Part shown: positions 1-60,148 of the stretch, one piece after another
Layout: every line of letters begins with the position of its first letter
How positions within the stretch are numbered: position 1 is the first letter of the stretch
Assembly: GCA_017883235.1 (NCBI GenBank)
Contig: JADGNY010000022.1
Span: forward strand, 1-60,148
Direction of reading: 5' to 3'
Source: Thermoanaerobaculia bacterium
Lineage (GTDB): Bacteria; Acidobacteriota; Thermoanaerobaculia; Gp7-AA8
Length of the DNA: 60,148 bases
The notes under the pieces: model-generated
What the model saw: the letters and a program-made list of their open reading frames with translations, nothing else
The model's database searches: none
What the model was told of the DNA's origin: nothing
Translations under genes and position numbers: made by a program

Positions 1-273
1 CTGATCATGGACTCGTGGAGTCTGATCATGGACTCGTGGAGTCTGATCATGGACTCGTGGAGTCTGATCATGGACTCGTGGAGTCTGATCATGGACTCGC
101 GGAGTCAATTCATGGACTCGCGGAGTCAATTCATGGACTCGTGGAGTCAATTCATGGACTCGTGGAGTCAATTCATGGACTCGCGGAGTCAATTCATGGA
201 CTCGTGGAGTCAATTCATGGACTCGTGGAGCCCATTCATGGCCTCGTGGAGTCAATTCATGGACTCGCGGAGT
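1..273. repeat. 21-bp tandem array A (13 units, truncated by window start)
   Basis: Thirteen head-to-tail 21-bp units run from base 1. The first units share the core TCATGGACTCGTGGAG. From about base 106 the 5' part of the unit changes from CTGATCATGG to CAATTCATGG. Each unit holds a short palindrome, GACTC-GTG-GAGTC or GACTC-GCG-GAGTC, in which the 5-bp arms are constant and only the 3-nt loop varies. The array is open in several frames because 21 is a multiple of 3, so a coding role is not implied. It continues beyond the left window edge. Confidence 0.95.
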
Positions 274-663
274 CCCGACTTACCAGTTTTGGCCGTTCCC
301 GTTCCTTCCATGGCCGGCGCTGGAACTGAAATGCGTCACTCGCGCCCGCGATCGTGCCGATTCAGCGAGCACGCCGGACGACTCACCGCGTGATCCGGGT
401 GACTCGCCGCGTGATCCCCTACCGTGTTCGCGCGTATCCCGAACGCGTCAGCAGCCTGTTGATCCGTCCAGTTTGGACCCGTCGACATCGACTCTCAGCA
501 GTACTCGCGCTCGCCCGATCTTCCGGGCACTTGCACGACCTTTCGAGACCAACCCCTTCAGCTCCTCCCGTTCCTCACTCGCGTGAGGCGAACGATGCAC
601 TTCTTCCCCATCACACCCTCCCGCCCCTTTTGGTCGTTCCGTTTCCATCCAGCAGCACCGGCG
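274..663. other. Intergenic stretch with degenerate 21-bp units
   Basis: No convincing gene is visible here. Around 380-425 two adjacent 21-nt segments begin GACTCACCGCGTGATCC and GACTCGCCGCGTGATCC, which look like decayed relatives of the preceding array. The rest is GC-rich sequence without recognisable motifs. Confidence 0.5.
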
Positions 664-1119
664 GTTTCAACCTTCGTCAAGCCGATCGGCCGCGATCGCC
701 TGCTCGACCGCGCCCGCCAACTGACGGCCACCATCAGTCCAAGACCGGCCTCCTGCTGATCGACGACGACACGTCACTCCACGAGCTCCTCGACGAAGAG
801 CTGACCCACCTCGGCTACACGATCGAGAGCGTTCTTCAACGGCGAAGCCGGCCTCGCCGCCGCAAAAGCGAACACTCCCGACGTCATCATCCTCGACCTG
901 ATGATGCCCGGCATGAGCGGCTTCGAGGTTGCAGGCCTGCTGAAGCACCACCCGTCCACCGCCCGCATCCCGATCCTCGTCCTGACGTCGAAGGAGATCT
1001 CCGCCGACGATCGCCGGGAGCTGCAGTCGAAGGTCGCCGCGTGCGTGCAGAAGGGGAAGAGTGCGAGGGATGATCAGTTGGTGGCGGAGATTCGGCGGCT
1101 GCGAAGGGCGAACGTATAG
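664..1119 (+). pseudogene. Frameshifted remnant of a hybrid two-component protein (receiver domain)
   Basis: Three reading-frame segments join into one recognisable product. Frame 1 gives STFVKPIGRDRLLDRARQLT, which looks like the C-terminal end of a receiver-type domain. Frame 3 then gives LLIDDDTSLHELLDEEL, the acidic pocket and first helix of a second receiver. From about base 829 frame 1 resumes with DVIILDLMMPGMSGFEV (phospho-acceptor Asp), ILVLTSKE (switch Thr) and a late Lys before the stop at 1117-1119. Two compensating frame changes are needed, near 735-745 and near 829. The upstream kinase or first receiver is missing. It is therefore a decayed tail of a multi-receiver hybrid kinase or regulator, unless the indels are assembly errors. 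Confidence 0.75.
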
Positions 1120-1435: not shown

Positions 1436-3154
1436 ATGGATCGCCACCTTCTAGTACTTTCTTGCTCTTCCATGAAAGTGGATCACCGCGATCCACTTCC
1501 CGCGCTCGCGCGGTACGACGGCCCCTACTACCGAGTCCTGAACTCGTACATCCGCGAACGCGGTTGGCCGGGAAAGTTATCGATCGCTGTGCTTTCCGCT
1601 GAGTACGGTCTCATCGGCGGATTGACTCAGATCGATAACTACGATCGTCGGATGGATGAAAGGCGCGCGGTTGAACTCCGCCGTGCCTGTACCGACACCT
1701 TGCTGAAATGGTCTGAAGCGCATTCGTCTGCCACATTGCTCCTCGGGAAGGATTACCTACCCGCGATCGATTTCACCGCGACCGCTCGCTTAAAGACGAC
1801 GGTGCCCGAGGGACCCATCGGCATGAAATTGCACGCACTTTCCGAGTGCCTGCGTGGGTTCTCTCCAACGACCGTTCGTGGGGAAATGCGATCTCCCCGA
1901 GCACGTGCGCCGATGTATTTCCTGCCGGATTGGGATGACTTACTCGATGTTGATTTCGACTTCCGAACGGACCGATTCTCTTCACCTGATCGCGCGACGA
2001 GAAATGAGGAGCACTGCATCAAGATCATGCAGCCGCGCCGAATGTGCGACGGTGTCCTGGTGAGCCTTGCGCAGAACCAAGGGACGAAAGGAATTCTGCG
2101 GAGGTTCGAGCCCACGGATGTTGAATCTCTCGCGCCGCAATCGATCCGACTGAAGTATGGTCTACGGGACGATCAATGGGCGTTCGGGGATTGCGGCGCA
2201 TTCTCGTACTCGTCGGCGCCTGAACCGACGATTACGACCGAACAAGCGGTTTCGCTCTACCACCTGTATGGCTTCGACCTCGGCGCGAGTGTCGACCACA
2301 TTCCACTTCCGTTCATCGACGGGCCGAAGGGTCCGGAAGCACTTTCGGAAACCGCGAAGAGGCGGCGTGTTCGAATGACTCACATGAACGCTCGCGAATT
2401 CATGGATGTCTGGTCGCGGCGAAAATGCACGTTTACTCCCGTAGGAATCATTCAGGGTCTTAGTGCACGAGATTACGCCAAGCAATTTCCAGAGTACGTG
2501 GAGATGGGATACTCCTTCATCGCGCTCGGTGGATTGGTGCCAAGGTCCGATAGCGAAATCGAGGAGATAGTTCGCGCAACCTCAAAGGCGCGTATATCGC
2601 TGCGGAAGCAAGATAGGGGTGTCCGTATTCATCTCTTCGGAGTGTTTCGTCCGAAGCTTCAGCGCTCCTTCAGAGAGTGCGGTGTGTTCAGTTTCGACAG
2701 TGCGACTTACTTCCGAAAGGCTTGGCTTCGCTCTGATCAGAACTACCTTGGTGCGGACGGCGATTGGTACGCCGCGATTCGAGTGCCAATGATGTCCGAC
2801 GCGCGAACACGCAAGCGGCTCGAAACTTCCGGGATCTCTGAGGTCGAACTGCAACGGCTCGAAAAGTCTTCTCTAGATGCGTTGCACGAATTCGCGCTGG
2901 GCAACGTGACGATTGATCATGCGGTGAGTGCTGTCCGAAAGTACGACGAACTGCTTTCACGCGGGGATGAGCAGGGTGAGAGCTTGTATACGAAGTACCG
3001 GCGAACACTAGAAGCGAAGCCATGGCTGTTGTGCGGATGCTCGGTATGTTGTGATCTCGGTATCGACATCGTCATTTTTCGAGGCTACAACCGCAACAAG
3101 CGGCGCGGCGCTCACAATACGTATCAACTCTATCGGTCGCTGCGAGGCACCTAA
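1436..3154 (+). CDS. DpdA-like TGT-superfamily protein with N-terminal DUF6884-like domain
   Basis: The protein has 572 residues. Residues 1-120 resemble the DUF6884/YaaA-like fold (LVLSCSSMK at the start, then LSAEYGLIGG and the NYDRRM motif). Residues about 200-572 resemble the tRNA-guanine transglycosylase superfamily, closest to DpdA: GDCGAFSY with D252, VGIIQGLS, GYSFIALGGLVPRSD, and FSFDSATYFRKAW with D421, the two positions matching the TGT catalytic aspartates. A zinc site CGCSVC (C533, C535, C538) is followed by RGYNRNKRRGAHN with H560. Established knowledge: DpdA proteins exchange guanine in DNA for 7-deazaguanine precursors in Dpd modification-restriction systems. The next gene starts 4 bases after the stop, so it heads a tight operon. 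No preQ0 synthesis genes are in the window, so precursor would have to come from elsewhere in the genome. DNA rather than tRNA as the target is inference. Confidence 0.8.
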   Translation: MDRHLLVLSCSSMKVDHRDPLPALARYDGPYYRVLNSYIRERGWPGKLSIAVLSAEYGLIGGLTQIDNYDRRMDERRAVELRRACTDTLLKWSEAHSSATLLLGKDYLPAIDFTATARLKTTVPEGPIGMKLHALSECLRGFSPTTVRGEMRSPRARAPMYFLPDWDDLLDVDFDFRTDRFSSPDRATRNEEHCIKIMQPRRMCDGVLVSLAQNQGTKGILRRFEPTDVESLAPQSIRLKYGLRDDQWAFGDCGAFSYSSAPEPTITTEQAVSLYHLYGFDLGASVDHIPLPFIDGPKGPEALSETAKRRRVRMTHMNAREFMDVWSRRKCTFTPVGIIQGLSARDYAKQFPEYVEMGYSFIALGGLVPRSDSEIEEIVRATSKARISLRKQDRGVRIHLFGVFRPKLQRSFRECGVFSFDSATYFRKAWLRSDQNYLGADGDWYAAIRVPMMSDARTRKRLETSGISEVELQRLEKSSLDALHEFALGNVTIDHAVSAVRKYDELLSRGDEQGESLYTKYRRTLEAKPWLLCGCSVCCDLGIDIVIFRGYNRNKRRGAHNTYQLYRSLRGT

Positions 3155-3157
3155 TCC

Positions 3158-5530
3158 TTGCTTTCAGAAGACGAATTCGTCCGCGCCGTACGAACGGTTG
3201 AGCGCTTCCACCGCGCTTGGCTGAACGACGAACAGCGCGAGGCGGTTACTGCTGGCGCAGGAACGCCCATTTTCATCGTCGCCGGTCCCGGCACAGGGAA
3301 GACCACGGTCCTGGCACTTCGCGCTCTGAAACTGATCCTAGTCGACGCCCTTCCGACTGAAGCGGTTATCGCTACAACGTTCACTCGAAAAGCGGCAACA
3401 GAACTGCGGTCGCGCATTCTGTCTTGGGGGTATCAGGCAGTCAGCGCGGCGATCGACTCTGCACGCGCGGCAGGTGAAACCGCGAAGCTTCAATGGCTCC
3501 ATCAAGTTGACGTGAACAGTGTCAAGGTGGGTACACTCGACTCTCTCGCGGAAGACTTCATTACCGACTGCCGTCTGCCCGGCGAGATTCTTCCCGCAAC
3601 CGTCGAGGGTTTCTTGGTTCGAGGACTGGCGCGTCAACACGCGTTGTGGGCGAACAAGCGGTTTCAGGATGCAAACCTTGCGGCGTTACTGCAACGGCTC
3701 ACCCCGCGATTCCCTTTCGCGAATTCCTTCGCGGCCAAGTTGGATGCAGTCGTCGCGTTTATCGAAAGAGCACGGCATGACGGAGTTGATCTCGAAGCGT
3801 ATTCACGTCGTGACGCCGGGTCGTCTGTATTGGTCGACGCGGCTCAGGATTACTTCCGTGCGCTAGGTGAGAACCACTATGCAGACTTCGCTCGGTTGGA
3901 GGTTCTTCTTCACGATCGGATTAGCCGCGGACAGCTCGAGCGAATCACTAATGTCGTCCGTGCGATTCTTGTCGACGAATTTCAGGATACAAATTTTCTA
4001 CAGGAGCAGATTTACCTAGAGTTCTGCCGCCGGACCGGTGCCAGCTTGACGGTGGTAGGTGACGATGACCAATCGATCTATCGGTTTCGCGGCGCAACCG
4101 TAGAGTTGTTCGCGAATTTTGAAACCCGCATCGTCAGTGCGCTTGGCGCGGAGTGGCAGCCACGACGCGTCAACCTGTTCCGTAACTATCGCTCATCGCA
4201 ACGAATCGTCGACTTCTGCAACAACTTCGCGACGTTGGATGAGACATATCTCGCCGCGCGCGTTGAAAACAAACCACGCCTCTTGCCTTCCGGCTTGCGA
4301 TCGACCAACGTTGAATGGAACGTTCCTGTACTCGGAATGTTTCGCAACAACATTCAGCAGCTTGCAATCGACCTCTCCACTTTTCTGAGCGACATCTTTC
4401 GCGGAGACGGCCGTCGGATCGTGACTCAGGATCGCGAGTATGTCATTCGCCGCTCTGAGGGAGGCGATTTTGGTGATGCGGTGTTCCTCTCTCGCTCCGT
4501 TCGTGAAAGAACATTGGCCGCTCAGCCCCGCGACCGGTTACCGCTAACTATCCGGCAAGAATTCGAATCACGTGGAATCCGTGTCTTCAACCCGCGAGGC
4601 CGCAGCTTGAAAGATCACATCAGCGTGCAGCGGTTGCTCGGTCTTGCGCTCGAATGTATCGATCCAGACGCTGCAATTCTGAACGGTATTACGACGATCA
4701 GCCCGGTTCACCGGAACACGATGCTGCAGTGGAGAAACGCCGCTGCACAGTTTAGGGCGTCCGATCCTGTTCCCGGGCGGCTTGATCAATTCGTCAGCGA
4801 CTGGATGCGGCGCAGTCCACGCAGCATGAGCGCGTGGCCGCGAGAGTGGCCTTTGCTGGAACTCATGTTTTCACTCGTAACCTGGCTGCCAGACTTTCAG
4901 CACGATCCGGAGGGTCAGGTTTATCTCGAAGCTGTCACGAGGACGATTTCCGAGGCAGCACAGGCGTCAATATACAGAGGCGTAATTCTCCATGGCACGC
5001 AGCGAGATCCGCAGTCAGTTCAGAACGCCATCCGCATGGTTTTCGAGGCGATCGCCGACGAGATTGTCGACGTCGATGAGGAGATCATGCCGGACGTTCC
5101 CCGCGACCGCTTTCCGCTCATGACAGTTCATCAAGCAAAAGGCCTTGAATTTCCCCTTGTCGTTCTGGACGTCGGATCCGACTACCAAAGAGCGCATGCG
5201 ATGCAAGCCGCGAGCAGGTATCCGCGAGAGGGTGACACCGTCCACGTGCGCGAAGATGACGTTGCCGACTTTTCCCCGGTCGGTCCCATGCGCAGCGGCC
5301 GAGCCGCCGTCGACCGCGCGTGGGATGATCTGCGCCGCCTCTACTTCGTCGCGGCCAGCCGTCCGCAAAACGTTCTTCTCCTCGTCGGTCACATCAACCT
5401 CCTCCGCCAACCCAACCCGATCCCGGCCATCGGTATGGGCGATCACCGCAGCGGATCACGGGCGATCGACTTCGTCCCCGCAGCAGCGTTTCGATCTGAT
5501 ATGTTTGCTGGCACGGTTGCCTACCTATAA
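3158..5530 (+). CDS. UvrD/PcrA/AddA-type superfamily 1 DNA helicase
   Basis: The 790-residue protein carries the full UvrD helicase motif set in order: Walker A GPGTGKTT, Ia TFTRKAATEL, Walker B ILVDEFQDT, III VGDDDQSIYRFRGA, IV NYRSS, V TVHQAKGLEFPLVVLD and VI RRLYFVAASRPQ. It should be a 3'-5' ATP-dependent DNA translocase. The start is TTG, since no ATG lies between the upstream stop and the conserved N-terminus; GAGG stands about 10 bases upstream. It lies 3 bases after the DpdA-like gene and 2 bases before a RecB-like nuclease gene, so the pair resembles an AddAB-like helicase-nuclease split over two genes. Unlike AddA it has no C-terminal nuclease domain. Confidence 0.93.
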   Translation: MLSEDEFVRAVRTVERFHRAWLNDEQREAVTAGAGTPIFIVAGPGTGKTTVLALRALKLILVDALPTEAVIATTFTRKAATELRSRILSWGYQAVSAAIDSARAAGETAKLQWLHQVDVNSVKVGTLDSLAEDFITDCRLPGEILPATVEGFLVRGLARQHALWANKRFQDANLAALLQRLTPRFPFANSFAAKLDAVVAFIERARHDGVDLEAYSRRDAGSSVLVDAAQDYFRALGENHYADFARLEVLLHDRISRGQLERITNVVRAILVDEFQDTNFLQEQIYLEFCRRTGASLTVVGDDDQSIYRFRGATVELFANFETRIVSALGAEWQPRRVNLFRNYRSSQRIVDFCNNFATLDETYLAARVENKPRLLPSGLRSTNVEWNVPVLGMFRNNIQQLAIDLSTFLSDIFRGDGRRIVTQDREYVIRRSEGGDFGDAVFLSRSVRERTLAAQPRDRLPLTIRQEFESRGIRVFNPRGRSLKDHISVQRLLGLALECIDPDAAILNGITTISPVHRNTMLQWRNAAAQFRASDPVPGRLDQFVSDWMRRSPRSMSAWPREWPLLELMFSLVTWLPDFQHDPEGQVYLEAVTRTISEAAQASIYRGVILHGTQRDPQSVQNAIRMVFEAIADEIVDVDEEIMPDVPRDRFPLMTVHQAKGLEFPLVVLDVGSDYQRAHAMQAASRYPREGDTVHVREDDVADFSPVGPMRSGRAAVDRAWDDLRRLYFVAASRPQNVLLLVGHINLLRQPNPIPAIGMGDHRSGSRAIDFVPAAAFRSDMFAGTVAYL

Positions 5531-5532
5531 AC

Positions 5533-6705
5533 ATGCTCTTGCCTGCTCGAGAATTGCCTTTCGAAGTACCGTCGTACAGCCTGACGGGCGACATCCTGGC
5601 GTTTCAAACCTGCGGCCTTCAGTATCGGTACTACAGCGGTAGCTCCCTGCCGCCGTCGCGTCCTGTTCAAATCTGGACGGGTGAATTCGTGCATGGTGCG
5701 CTGGAGGACGCCTATCGCCTATGGCGCGAGCGGCAGTTTCCATTTCCTTGGCCCAGCAATCCCACTCCATTTCCCGCTCCAAACCCCCTCCCCCAACGAG
5801 CCGAGAATGACATCGGAGTCATCGGGGACCGAGTAGAGGCTCGACTAGCTGCATCAGGCAAACGCCCGCGCAACCGAGATGCGCGCGAAGCGGTCTACCG
5901 CCGCGTTACCTCCGCAATCAATGAGTTGGGACCGCACCTGTTTCCTCTAATCACCGCCGCCGAAGAGCGCATTTCAGGAACGCGGGCCATGCCCGAAATC
6001 GAGGGTCGCGTTGCGCGAGGCGACCGATACGAACTGACGGGGATCGTTGACGTCATCTCAAGCGTTCAACTCGGCCGCGAAACCACAAACCCGCTCGTGA
6101 GAATGTTGCAAGGCCATCTCCCTAATCGCGCTGGCGTTTTCGACATCATCGTTGACTACAAAGCCAGCCGCAGACCGGGCAGCGCTGACAGCTTTTGGGT
6201 AAACCAGCAGTGGCAGGTGCAGACGTATGCTTGGCTGCGCGAACAGTCCGCCACCGCCAACCCAATCGGAGCAGGCGTTATCGTTTACGTCGATGAACTC
6301 GCGCCGTCGGCGACCGAATTGACGGCATTCAAGAAAGAGCTCGAAGCGGGCACTGCTGACGTGGCTCCGCCCGTAGGATCGGCAGACTGGTACGCGATTC
6401 AGCGGTGGCGAAGCGGAGCGGAGTTGCCGGAACTCACCTTCGACTTCCGCGTAAACCGGGCGGTCCGGATCATCAGCGTGTCGCGTGTTGACGTTGACGC
6501 AGCAGTTCACGCGATCGATGGTGTCGTCGAACGCATCGAAGCATCCGCGGTCCGCGAGTTCAACACAGGAGACATCCTGGCAAATTGGTCTGCATGCGGC
6601 GGGGAGACAACTTGTGTCGCCTGCGACTTCCGGACGTTCTGTCCCGAACCGCACGCGCATCGCGGCAATCCGCATGGACCGCGTCCAGCTTCGGCACCCG
6701 GTTAG
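5533..6705 (+). CDS. RecB/Cas4/AddB-like PD-(D/E)XK nuclease with Fe-S cysteines
   Basis: The protein has 390 residues. The nuclease core is visible as GVFDIIVDYKAS (the acidic residue and DYK of the PD-(D/E)XK fold) followed by NQQWQVQTYAWL, the QxxxY helix typical of RecB-family nucleases. One cysteine near the N-terminus (QTCGLQYRYY) plus CGGETTCVACDFRTFC at the C-terminus reproduce the spacing of Cas4/AddB-type [4Fe-4S] nucleases. It starts 2 bases after the helicase stop and is surely co-translated. With the helicase it would form a DNA end-processing or target-degrading module. Its pairing with a TGT-like enzyme suggests action on modified, or unmodified, DNA, which is inference. Confidence 0.88.
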   Translation: MLLPARELPFEVPSYSLTGDILAFQTCGLQYRYYSGSSLPPSRPVQIWTGEFVHGALEDAYRLWRERQFPFPWPSNPTPFPAPNPLPQRAENDIGVIGDRVEARLAASGKRPRNRDAREAVYRRVTSAINELGPHLFPLITAAEERISGTRAMPEIEGRVARGDRYELTGIVDVISSVQLGRETTNPLVRMLQGHLPNRAGVFDIIVDYKASRRPGSADSFWVNQQWQVQTYAWLREQSATANPIGAGVIVYVDELAPSATELTAFKKELEAGTADVAPPVGSADWYAIQRWRSGAELPELTFDFRVNRAVRIISVSRVDVDAAVHAIDGVVERIEASAVREFNTGDILANWSACGGETTCVACDFRTFCPEPHAHRGNPHGPRPASAPG

Positions 6706-6748
6706 TCTACGAGCCGTAGAGATAAGCTGAGGCGGACGCGCTCTCTGG

Positions 6749-6754
6749 TACGAT
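6749..6754 (+). promoter_or_regulatory. Candidate -10 element for a leaderless transcript
   Basis: TACGAT ends 6 bases before the ATG at 6761, so transcription would begin at or next to the start codon. No good -35 hexamer and no Shine-Dalgarno are seen. The same arrangement recurs at several other genes in the window, which is the main support. Confidence 0.4.
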
Positions 6755-6760
6755 CAAGCC

Positions 6761-7723
6761 ATGGAGAAAGCAGACAACACGGAAGCCGCTCGCCGGCAGC
6801 ATCAACTACGTTGGCTTGAAGACGCACCGCTGTTCAGCGATCCCGTCTCGATCGCTCGTTTTCATGACGCCATCGTCCGACCAACGTCAACGACGAATCA
6901 GGTGACGTACGCGGCGAGCGAAGCACGGATTCAAGAGTTTAAGGCAGAATTGGGCATCGAAGCTGGCGTCGGCATCGGCTTGCCTCAGTTTCTCGCAGCC
7001 ATTTTCGACTTTAAGGCGGAGGCGAAAGCGAAGGCGAAAGGGGGCGCAACCACTACATCGAAGGAAGGCAAGACGGTAACTCTGAACGTCACTCCCGTGC
7101 AGAATGCCGAAAGGCAGTTGCAGGACGTGATCGTTCAATACCTTCTTCGGTATCCGGATCGGTTCTTCTTTTCGCAAGACGTTCGGGTGCCAAAATGGAC
7201 CGAGCCGCAGTGGATTAGCGAGACGCCGCGGCCGCTCGTCTTCCTTTCATTACCAGACGCGATTGAAGCTGACATTCTAAAAATGCCGAAAACCCAACTC
7301 GTGCCGACCGCAGCCGAATTCGAAAACGGAGAGGTCGTCCAGATATACAGCACGTTGAAGTTTGGAAAGAAGGAAGATGAGAATCCTCCTGACTACCCTC
7401 AGGTTGGTGAATCCGAGGCCGATCTCGTAGCGGAGCGCAAAAAGTATTGGTCCTGGTTCGAAGATAATTTCAATCCGACGGCTGCGATGCTCGCTGTGGA
7501 AGCTGCTGCCAAAGGTCGTGGCCGAATCCACTGGATCGATTACCGCCTGCCGATCGACACGGACGGGACGACCCTTCACCTTCACGTGTCCCCGCGTGGC
7601 CAATATCCCACCGGCGACTTCGCGTACAACCTGATCAAGCGCGGTTACAAGCACGGCATTCGACTAGTCGGAACCCTAAAATCAGAACCCGATATGAACG
7701 TCTTAGCGATCTACGAACGGTAG
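6761..7723 (+). CDS. Unrecognised 320-aa protein, fourth gene of the DpdA-like operon
   Basis: I do not recognise this family. The 320-residue protein has no signal peptide or membrane segment. It contains a low-complexity Lys/Ala stretch near residue 85 (FKAEAKAKAKGG), a central segment with LQDVIVQYLLRYPDRFFF, and a C-terminal part with LPIDTDGTTLHLHVSPRGQ and LVGTLKSEPDMNVLAIYER. The order alpha-rich N-terminus, linker, mixed C-terminus could suit a small adaptor or sensor. It follows the nuclease gene by 55 bases on the same strand, has similar base composition, and the next gene is convergent, so it is most likely the last member of the same module. A possible own -10 sits directly before its ATG, so it may also be expressed separately. 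Confidence 0.7.
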   Translation: MEKADNTEAARRQHQLRWLEDAPLFSDPVSIARFHDAIVRPTSTTNQVTYAASEARIQEFKAELGIEAGVGIGLPQFLAAIFDFKAEAKAKAKGGATTTSKEGKTVTLNVTPVQNAERQLQDVIVQYLLRYPDRFFFSQDVRVPKWTEPQWISETPRPLVFLSLPDAIEADILKMPKTQLVPTAAEFENGEVVQIYSTLKFGKKEDENPPDYPQVGESEADLVAERKKYWSWFEDNFNPTAAMLAVEAAAKGRGRIHWIDYRLPIDTDGTTLHLHVSPRGQYPTGDFAYNLIKRGYKHGIRLVGTLKSEPDMNVLAIYER

Positions 7724-19249: not shown

Positions 19250-19570
19250 AATCGCATCAAATTGGACCGACGCCGCTCCAAACGGATCGAAATCGGTCCA
19301 AATTGGATCGATACCGCATCAAATTGGATCGATGCCGCATCAAATTGGATCGATACCGCATCAAATTGGATCGATACCGCATCAAATTGGATCGATGCCG
19401 CTCCAAATTGGATCGATACCGCATCAAATTGGATCGATGCCGGATCAAGTTGGATCGATACCGCTCCAAATTGGACCGATGCCGCATCAAATTGGATCGA
19501 TACCGCATCAAATCGGACCGATGCCGCATCAAATTGGATCGATACCGCATCAAGTTGGACCGATACCGCG
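19250..19570. repeat. 21-bp tandem array B between nfeD and slipin
   Basis: About fifteen 21-bp units share the core ATTGGATCGATACCGC. They vary mainly at three spots: ATACCGC or ATGCCGC, ATCAA or CTCCA, and GGATC or GGACC. The centre ATCGAT is palindromic. The array is flanked by inverted GC-rich text, GGTCGCGGGGTTTCGCGGTC near 19108 and GAGACCCCGCAACCGCGAG near 19577. The same unit occurs in inverted orientation at 59886-60148. Confidence 0.95.
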
Positions 19571-59885: not shown

Positions 59886-60148
59886 CGGTGTCGATCCAAT
59901 TTGGAGCGGCATCGATTCGATTTGATGCGGTATCGATCCAATTCGATTCGGCATCGAATCAATCTGATGCGGTATCGAATCAATCTGATGCGGCATCGAT
60001 CCAACCTGATGCGGTATCGATCCAATCTGATGCGGTATCGATCCAATCTGATGCGACATCGAATCAATCTGATGCGGTATCGAATCAGTCTGATGCGGTA
60101 TCGAATGAATCTGATGCGGCATCGAATCAATCTGATGCGGCATCGAAT
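59886..60148. repeat. 21-bp tandem array C (truncated by window end), inverted copy of the array B family
   Basis: At least twelve 21-bp units, read on the + strand as GCGGTATCGATCCAATCTGAT-like text, are the reverse complement of array B units (ATTGGATCGATACCGC). Differences are mostly single positions (C for T, T for C). It runs to the window end. No gene is visible in it. Confidence 0.95.

What the first reader, a model, noticed from the sequence alone, without database searches (positions are those of the whole stretch)
1436..7723. Four-gene module pairing a DpdA-like transglycosylase with a UvrD helicase and an Fe-S RecB nuclease
Three gene junctions are 2-55 bases and all four genes point the same way. 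The first carries both TGT-type aspartates (D252, D421) and the C-x-C-x2-C...H zinc site, plus a DUF6884-like N-terminus. The next two form a split helicase-nuclease. Established knowledge: Dpd systems insert 7-deazaguanines into DNA and carry restriction genes, but the classical dpd set (dpdB, C, D and so on) is absent here and the partners differ. Inference: a compact modification-restriction or DNA-sensing system. Lower GC than the flanks, a decayed regulator and repeats at its left edge fit an acquired island.
Basis: partly seen in the sequence, partly recalled or inferred. Interest (0 to 1): 0.9.

Follow-up and report, generated by a model that had tools for sequence, protein, structure and literature searches.

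The report
Compact DNA-marking and DNA-shredding gene module
A set of neighbouring bacterial genes appears to swap a letter of the cell's own DNA for an altered one and to carry a DNA-unwinding and DNA-cutting pair that could destroy DNA without that mark; the same set recurs in distant bacteria and in a virus-like sequence, so it looks like a stripped-down, swappable version of a known DNA-marking defence.

Summary
Real and conserved. Gene 1 (572 aa) is DpdA, the DNA preQ0 transglycosylase (NCBIfam 320 bits, cut-off 200; PDB 7ui4, E 3e-98), fused to a DUF6884 domain, the DpdC-type domain. Genes 2 and 3 are an intact UvrD helicase and a PD-(D/E)XK nuclease with four conserved cysteines. I found 17 such fusions, in at least five phyla: 13 have UvrD plus nuclease adjacent, three have HerA plus NurA instead, one of the 13 has both pairs, one has neither. 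The two genes of a pair match in subfamily in 18 of 18 units, yet pairs are exchanged between DpdA lineages. In reverse, all 4 of 72,556 plasmids with a nuclease match also carry a DpdA-type gene. DpdB and DpdD-K were not found beside the fusions. Gene 4 is optional: its two other strong matches also sit beside the fusion. The genome encodes preQ0 synthesis; GC3 suggests acquisition. Best reading: a compact, DpdB-less Dpd-type modification-restriction system with exchangeable helicase-nuclease effectors. Modification, restriction and gene 4's role are inferred, not shown. I found no description in the held literature; the primary Dpd papers were not held.

The parts
1436..3154 (+). Gene 1: DpdC-type (DUF6884) + DpdA fusion, 572 aa, predicted DNA 7-deazaguanine transglycosylase
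   Evidence: NF041059 DpdA 320 bits, cut-off 200; PADLOC DpdA 4.5e-92; 7ui4 E 2.8e-98, Z 28.6; model pLDDT 81.8
1436..1855 (+). DUF6884 / DpdC-type N-terminal domain (residues 1-140)
   Evidence: PF21818 29.2 bits, cut-off 30; hhalign, one pair, of 15 N-termini against three proteins taken as DpdC by their place beside dpdA/dpdB: probability 94.8, E 4.9e-8; one of these matches PF21818 at E 6e-5
1916..3154 (+). DpdA catalytic domain (residues 161-572)
   Evidence: NF041059 match 161-570; D252, D421, C533, C535, C538, H560 invariant in 15 of 15
3032..3115 (+). C-x-C-x2-C...H zinc site of the DpdA domain
   Evidence: invariant in 15 of 15
3158..5530 (+). Gene 2: UvrD-type SF1 helicase, 790 aa, no nuclease domain matched
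   Evidence: PF00580 161 bits; Walker A and DE-x-QD motifs intact in 15 of 15
5533..6705 (+). Gene 3: PD-(D/E)XK (PDDEXK_1, Cas4/AddB-like) nuclease with four conserved cysteines, predicted Fe-S, 390 aa
   Evidence: PF12705 45 bits; D173, K210, C27, C361, C364, C370 in 15 of 15, D208 in 14 of 15 (E in the other)
6761..7723 (+). Gene 4: optional accessory protein of unknown fold, 320 aa
   Evidence: no family at E<=0.01; besides the query, both strong matches lie directly upstream of the fused DpdA

Best explanation
A compact, DpdB-less Dpd-type modification-restriction system. Step 1 (genes present elsewhere in the genome): FolE, QueD, QueE and QueC make preQ0. Step 2 (inferred from family and conserved residues): the DpdA part of gene 1 swaps guanine in the cell's own DNA for preQ0 by TGT chemistry, and the fused DpdC-type part may hydrolyse it to the amide (dADG). 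Step 3 (inferred): UvrD and the PD-(D/E)XK nuclease form a motor-nuclease that degrades DNA lacking the mark. Gene 4 is an accessory specificity or regulatory subunit in a minority of loci. The helicase-nuclease pair is a cassette that can be exchanged for another subfamily or for HerA-NurA. Shown: gene content, intact motifs, conservation, matched pairs and cassette exchange. Not shown: the base in DNA, and any restriction.
For: DpdA assignment. DpdC-type domain: and a passage of PMC11888242. 13 of 17 fused loci have UvrD+PDDEXK adjacent. In reverse, 4 of 4 plasmids with a nuclease match also have a DpdA/TGT match, about 6e-14 by chance if records were independent, and both IMG/VR records found with the nuclease also hold DpdA. 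UvrD and nuclease subfamilies match in 18 of 18 units, while related DpdAs carry different pair subfamilies. HerA-NurA replaces the pair in three Poribacteria and stands beside it in L018. In Bradyrhizobium (annotated) and Rhizobium (my tblastn) the pair sits beside queC, queD, queE, two dpdB, dpdA and a dpdC-type gene, with no DpdD-K match in the stretch. preQ0 genes. Sporadic: the fusion in 2 of 396 and the nuclease in 1 of 396 genomes of the phylum; the one other genome of the genus in that draw lacks both. Low GC3. R-M genes adjoin the module in L009 (MmeI-type IIG) and L015 (HsdM).
Against: No modified base, expression or phage phenotype was measured. One fused locus (L014) has no helicase-nuclease in the held DNA; its DpdA ORF ends a little short and overlaps a recombinase-like ORF (by eye). 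33 of the 37 plasmid records matched by P0001 have no P0003 match, so most such genes use other partners, though some of these are DUF6884-only matches and one (Scytonema) does have a divergent pair. The LSAxxG motif is relaxed in L019-L022 and CxxxK is broken in L018, so amide formation is doubtful there. A virus-like record has a second DUF6884-UvrD-PDDEXK unit about 20 kb from its DpdA, so DUF6884 may serve the nuclease instead. PMC5704561 (passage) reports unfused UvrD/Cas4-like operons without signs of defence. Most relatives are MAGs. Gene 4's model was unusable (pLDDT 44).
Confidence: 0.63

Rival explanations
1. Modification-support reading: UvrD (or HerA) takes over the ATPase role of the missing DpdB, opening DNA so that DpdA can exchange the base, and the nuclease removes failed intermediates. 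The whole module only marks DNA.
For: No DpdB match at the fused loci or in 10 of 10 whole genomes tested (the same query found DpdB in 3 of 4 control plasmids); each partner pair is a predicted DNA motor plus nuclease.
Against: Bradyrhizobium and Rhizobium keep two DpdB genes and also have UvrD+PDDEXK, so the pair is not simply a DpdB substitute. [quoted passage not shown]
Confidence: 0.15
2. Sensor or type IV-like reading: the DUF6884 domain reads a base (7-deazaguanine or a lesion) and directs the helicase-nuclease to modified or damaged DNA, as against phages that carry 7-deazaguanines.
For: Stand-alone DUF6884 directly upstream of UvrD-PDDEXK in L040 and of NurA-HerA in L018; Pfam authors predict base flipping for DUF6884 YfjM (PMC11701544, passage); GrwAB targets 7-deazaguanine DNA (PMC12137116, passages).
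Against: A self-marking DpdA in the same module would put the host's own DNA at risk unless the two states are told apart.
Confidence: 0.12
3. DNA repair or recombination module (AddAB/Cas4-like) with an incidental DpdA neighbour.
For: PDDEXK_1 and UvrD are common in repair (recalled); PMC5704561 (passages) reports an unfused UvrD/Cas4-like operon outside defence contexts.
Against: Nuclease found in 1 of 396 genomes of the phylum at E<=1e-8 and with DpdA in every record where it was found by search: 4 of 4 plasmids, 2 of 2 IMG/VR records; GC3 and the DpdA tree point to transfer.
Confidence: 0.06
4. tRNA modification: gene 1 is a divergent tRNA-guanine transglycosylase.
For: Weak Pfam TGT match, 20.2 bits, under the cut-off of 26.3; NCBI names the family 'tRNA-guanine transglycosylase DpdA'.
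Against: 7ui4 DpdA far ahead of any tRNA TGT by profile and by structure (Z 28.6 against 21.1); a separate TGT gene exists in the genome (521 bits).
Confidence: 0.02

Closest known systems
Dpd (7-deazapurine in DNA) system, dpdA-K
   Same: DpdA, a DpdC-type domain, preQ0 dependence expected, association with helicases and a nuclease
   Different: DpdC-type domain fused to DpdA (also seen in cyanobacterial and Paenibacillus dpd-type clusters); DpdB and DpdD-K not found; UvrD + PDDEXK (or HerA-NurA) in place of the DpdE/F/H/J helicases and PLD DpdK
BRIGADE (PMC12458937, passages read)
   Same: Dpd-like biosynthesis, with a PD-(D/E)xK nuclease in some members
   Different: BRIGADE is defined by YprA-like helicases and was reported only in halophilic archaea; no DpdJ (YprA-like) match here. 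The Halobaculum plasmid L032, with a TGT, UvrD-PDDEXK and a DpdJ-like helicase, may bridge the two
BRC, BREX-related capture (PMC12839542, section 36 read)
   Same: TGT with a HerA translocase in some members
   Different: PglZ, DUF6079, STAND NTPase and DUF4007 belong to BRC; none is among the four module genes
UvrD-Cas4-like fusions beside R-M genes (PMC5704561, passages read)
   Same: UvrD plus pfam12705 nuclease near DNA-modifying enzymes
   Different: there one fused protein beside methyltransferases; here two genes beside a base-exchange enzyme
AddAB / RecBCD
   Same: SF1 helicase plus Fe-S type PD-(D/E)XK nuclease
   Different: two short separate proteins, sporadic, no nuclease domain on the helicase

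Membership tests
DpdA family | Scores above the curated DpdA model cut-off | tested here: met
   320.2 against 200 bits
DpdA family | TGT-type aspartates and zinc site | tested here: met
   15 of 15 invariant
DpdA family | Inserts preQ0 into DNA | not testable with these tools
   needs mass spectrometry
Canonical Dpd system | DpdC | tested here: met
   a DpdC-type DUF6884 domain is fused to DpdA; its activity is untested
Canonical Dpd system | DpdB | tested here: not met
   no match at the window or the 16 other fused loci or in 10 of 10 genomes; control 3 of 4, so a very divergent DpdB could be missed
Canonical Dpd system | Restriction genes DpdD-K | tested here: not met
   E. cloacae DpdD-K by tblastn at 1e-4 or looser (DpdF cut short, DpdI taken by position): none at the window or the 16 other fused loci; only the held DNA was searched, not whole genomes
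Canonical Dpd system | preQ0 supply in the genome | tested here: met
   QueC, PTPS/QueD, QueE, FolE
tRNA TGT | Pfam TGT gathering score | tested here: not met
   20.2 against 26.3 bits
BRIGADE | YprA-like helicase (DpdJ relative) | tested here: not met
   no DpdJ match at the window or the 16 other fused loci; the same query hit L027 and L032
BRC | PglZ, DUF6079, DUF4007 | not tested
   none of the four module genes matches them; the rest of the genome was not searched
AddAB | Nuclease domain fused to the helicase subunit | tested here: not met
   Pfam finds helicase domains only in gene 2
Gabija | GajA OLD-type nuclease beside a GajB helicase | tested here: not met
   gene 2 resembles GajB (119 bits) but its neighbour is PDDEXK_1; no GajA in the full lists for genes 1, 3 and 4 (gene 2's list was cut at 25 of 52)

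The most novel reading that the evidence does not exclude
7-deazaguanine marking is not tied to one restriction machinery: at least three unrelated effector kits (DpdD-K, UvrD-PDDEXK, HerA-NurA) plug into DpdA as exchangeable cassettes, and a virus-like element carries such a cassette too. Boldest form, for which the probability is given: the DpdC-DpdA fusion works without DpdB and is itself aimed at foreign DNA, base exchange on the invader marking or wounding it for the helicase-nuclease (base-exchange restriction).
Probability: 0.13. Interest if true: 0.9.

Novelty: new variant of a known kind. Interest (0 to 1): 0.78.

Why it matters
How canonical Dpd clusters restrict unmarked DNA is still poorly understood (recalled). 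A three-gene form with all likely enzymes, in five or more phyla, would be a tractable model: it predicts that one polypeptide can make the mark without DpdB, and that a simple motor-nuclease reads it. Exchange with HerA-NurA would show that marking and destruction are separable modules.

Tried and rejected
Considered and rejected: tRNA TGT; classical Dpd with genes merely missed; Gabija and AddAB; left-edge repeats as an island border; gene 4 as a chance neighbour. My own guess that gene 4 is DUF6414-like was recall and got no support from Pfam at E 10.

Led nowhere: P0001 alone in viral contigs and the gene 4 alignment A3 there gave no relatives; in phages P0001 matched 2 of 50,697 records, one over the DpdA part and one over DUF6884 only; gene 4 in plasmids and the nuclease in phages gave no match; gene 4 and nuclease profiles against PDB gave no match; the gene 4 model was poor. 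Weak gene 4 matches in G124 (49 residues, E 4.7e-4; no module match in 13 kb) and G760 (36 residues, E 2.7e-4; no module in 16 kb) are not counted as homologues. In the VIA list one domain filled the rows, so the DUF6884 fold was not tested against YaaA. Promoter-like and terminator-like sites were no more frequent than in shuffles. Four key Dpd papers (Thiaville 2016, Yuan 2018, Gedara 2023, the 2024 review) were not held, so 'not described' rests on searches only.

Rows dropped before counts: L013's UvrD (split into two ORFs), and its nuclease; L006 and G496 from A4; G496 from the tree; Halobaculum. Subfamilies come from average linkage cut at distances of 66 (UvrD) and 69 (nuclease) that I chose.
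Full report
Observation. The window is a whole contig of a 6.9 Mb draft genome. Four ORFs on + lie at 1436-3154, 3158-5530, 5533-6705 and 6761-7723 with gaps of 3, 2 and 55 bases. Gene 1 has two parts: residues 7-135 match DUF6884 (E 1.1e-6, 29.2 bits, cut-off 30) and residues 161-570 match NCBIfam DpdA at 320 bits, cut-off 200. Genes 2 and 3 are UvrD and PDDEXK_1; gene 4 matches nothing at E<=0.01.

Gene 1 is a DNA enzyme by family. A profile of 15 relatives finds DpdA 7ui4 at E 2.8e-98; the only other PDB match at E<=0.01 is the archaeosine TGT at 1.6e-6. The AlphaFold model (pLDDT 81.8, pTM 0.81) matches 7ui4 first (Foldseek E 1.7e-28; Z 28.6, rmsd 5.5 over 361 residues, against Z 21.1 for the best tRNA TGT). 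D252, D421, C533, C535, C538 and H560 are invariant in 15 of 15. The genome has a separate TGT gene on another contig.

The N-terminal part is DpdC-type. The gene upstream of dpdA in a canonical E. cloacae cluster, annotated only as hypothetical and taken here as DpdC by position, matches DUF6884 (E 6e-5). A profile of 15 N-termini aligns with this and two other such proteins (single-pair hhalign, probability 94.8, E 4.9e-8). The GATOR-GC preprint names DUF6884 as the DpdC domain (PMC11888242, passages), and PMC12839542 (section 36) states that DpdC turns dPreQ0 into dADG. Caution: the two DUF6884 motifs described by Pfam (PMC11701544, passage) are relaxed in a few relatives (L018-L022). The fusion is not unique to this module: DpdA proteins of 689-714 aa with such an N-terminus occur in cyanobacteria and Paenibacillus (two shown by Pfam; the others by length and N-terminal sequence), beside other dpd-type genes.

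Conservation. Searches gave 17 full-length fusions: the window; G010, in the same phylum; a 143-kb IMG/VR contig with TrwC relaxase, TraD-type protein and integrase, which looks like a conjugative element; 13 loci from the 84,980 species genomes, found with two short peptide patterns and so a lower bound; and G496. Record titles name Planctomycetota, Pelotomaculum (Bacillota), Armatimonadetes, Desulfobacterales/Deltaproteobacteria and Poribacteria, five phyla; the window's own phylum is not told. UvrD plus PDDEXK adjoins in 13 of 17: window, L006, L009, L010, L011, L012, L013 (UvrD in two ORFs), L015, L016, L017 (upstream), L018, L022 and G496. L019-L021 instead have a NurA-like gene and a HerA-like ATPase directly upstream of DpdA (in L021 Pfam gives DUF87 71 bits and NurA 17 bits, the latter below its cut-off of 21; L019 and L020 were judged by place, length and sequence only). 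L018 has NurA (22 bits) and HerA (86 bits) before, and UvrD-PDDEXK after, the same DpdA. L014 has neither; its DpdA ORF ends a little short and overlaps a recombinase-like ORF (by eye).

Reverse test. tblastn with the nuclease (E<=1e-5) finds 4 of 72,556 plasmids: Bradyrhizobium, Rhizobium, Picosynechococcus and, weakly, Halobaculum (24%, 73% covered). All four are among the 37 with a P0001 match. Chance is 5.7e-14 if records were independent, which related records are not. The other 33 have no nuclease match, so most plasmid DpdA-type genes have other partners; a Scytonema plasmid among them does have a divergent UvrD and PDDEXK beside DpdB. In IMG/VR the nuclease alignment finds two records; both also hold DpdA. 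The second (G396) holds, on one strand, a broken DUF6884 remnant, UvrD, PDDEXK and an unfused DpdA (L047), and about 20 kb away a stand-alone DUF6884-UvrD-PDDEXK unit (L040). In 396 genomes of the phylum the nuclease (E<=1e-8) occurs only in the window's genome and the fusion in 2.

The pair is a cassette. UvrD and nuclease each fall into three subfamilies at most 34% identical to one another, and the assignment agrees in 18 of 18 units. In the DpdA tree (midpoint root, Halobaculum on a long branch, virus row of odd composition) the 16 fusions included form one clade (100/99), the virus DpdA is next to it (100/98), and the HerA-NurA rows nest inside Poribacteria (100/100). Pair subfamilies cut across it: L022 sits in the window's DpdA clade but has the pair type of L017; G496 has a window-like DpdA (54%, against 38% to L006) but the pair type of L006.

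Missing and present Dpd parts. tblastn with E. cloacae DpdB and DpdD-K and other DpdB proteins finds none at the window or the 16 other fused loci; DpdB is absent from 10 of 10 whole genomes. The control rang in 3 of 4 dpd plasmids, missing the divergent Scytonema DpdB. A DpdB-less form is not new as such: PMC12839542 says DpdB was suggested to be dispensable in certain clusters. QueD lies within 2.5 kb of the module or touches it in L006, L012, L022 and G496, and QueD-QueE-QueC lies 2.3 kb upstream in L016. The window's genome has QueC next to QueE, three PTPS genes and two GTP cyclohydrolase I genes. Bradyrhizobium (annotated) and Rhizobium (unannotated record, read by tblastn) have queC, queD, queE, two dpdB, dpdA and a dpdC-type gene next to UvrD-PDDEXK; no DpdD-K match was seen in those stretches.

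Gene 4. Besides the query, the strong matches are Planctomycetales 10988 (40%, directly upstream of the fusion) and G496 (39%, directly upstream), from 396 + 372 genomes searched. It is thus with 3 of the 17 fused loci in the held DNA: a real but optional component of unknown fold. Weak partial matches in G124 and G760 are not counted.

Acquisition. GC3 0.62-0.64 against 0.82-0.86 in four flanking genes; integrases or recombinases lie near L009, L010, L014 and G496; R-M genes adjoin L009 and L015.

Mechanism and novelty. Best reading: self-marking by DpdC-DpdA, destruction of unmarked DNA by the motor-nuclease, without DpdB. The rivals (modification support, sensor, repair, tRNA) are listed with tests. 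Among held papers only one contains both words DpdA and UvrD, a phage genome where they are separate genes (passages). BRIGADE and BRC are the nearest published variants seen (passages and one section). The primary Dpd papers were not held, so novelty against them is untested.

Noticed in passing
window 5-274, 19253-19569, 59906-60148: Three arrays of 21-bp tandem repeats; two sit at the contig ends, so this repeat class probably breaks the assembly.
   Followed up: partly
window 748-1119: CheY-like receiver domain interrupted by a frameshift (read by eye).
   Followed up: no
L047 and L040 (record G396): A virus-like record holds two UvrD-PDDEXK units of different subfamilies, one DpdA, one intact and one broken DUF6884, plus an anaerobic ribonucleotide reductase and a dCMP deaminase-type gene.
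   Followed up: partly
L026 15167-16114, L024 6159-7082, L028 16074-16997: A second, short TGT-family protein (about 300 aa) near the long DpdA in Nostoc, Picosynechococcus and Paenibacillus plasmids (annotated so); the Nostoc one matches Pfam TGT at 78.6 bits.
   Followed up: no
L018 4819-14257: One Poribacteria locus carries stand-alone DUF6884, NurA, HerA, fused DpdA, UvrD and PDDEXK in a row.
   Followed up: yes
L032: Halobaculum plasmid with an archaeal-type TGT, queC-folE-queE-queD, UvrD-PDDEXK and a DpdJ-like helicase; possible bridge to BRIGADE.
   Followed up: partly
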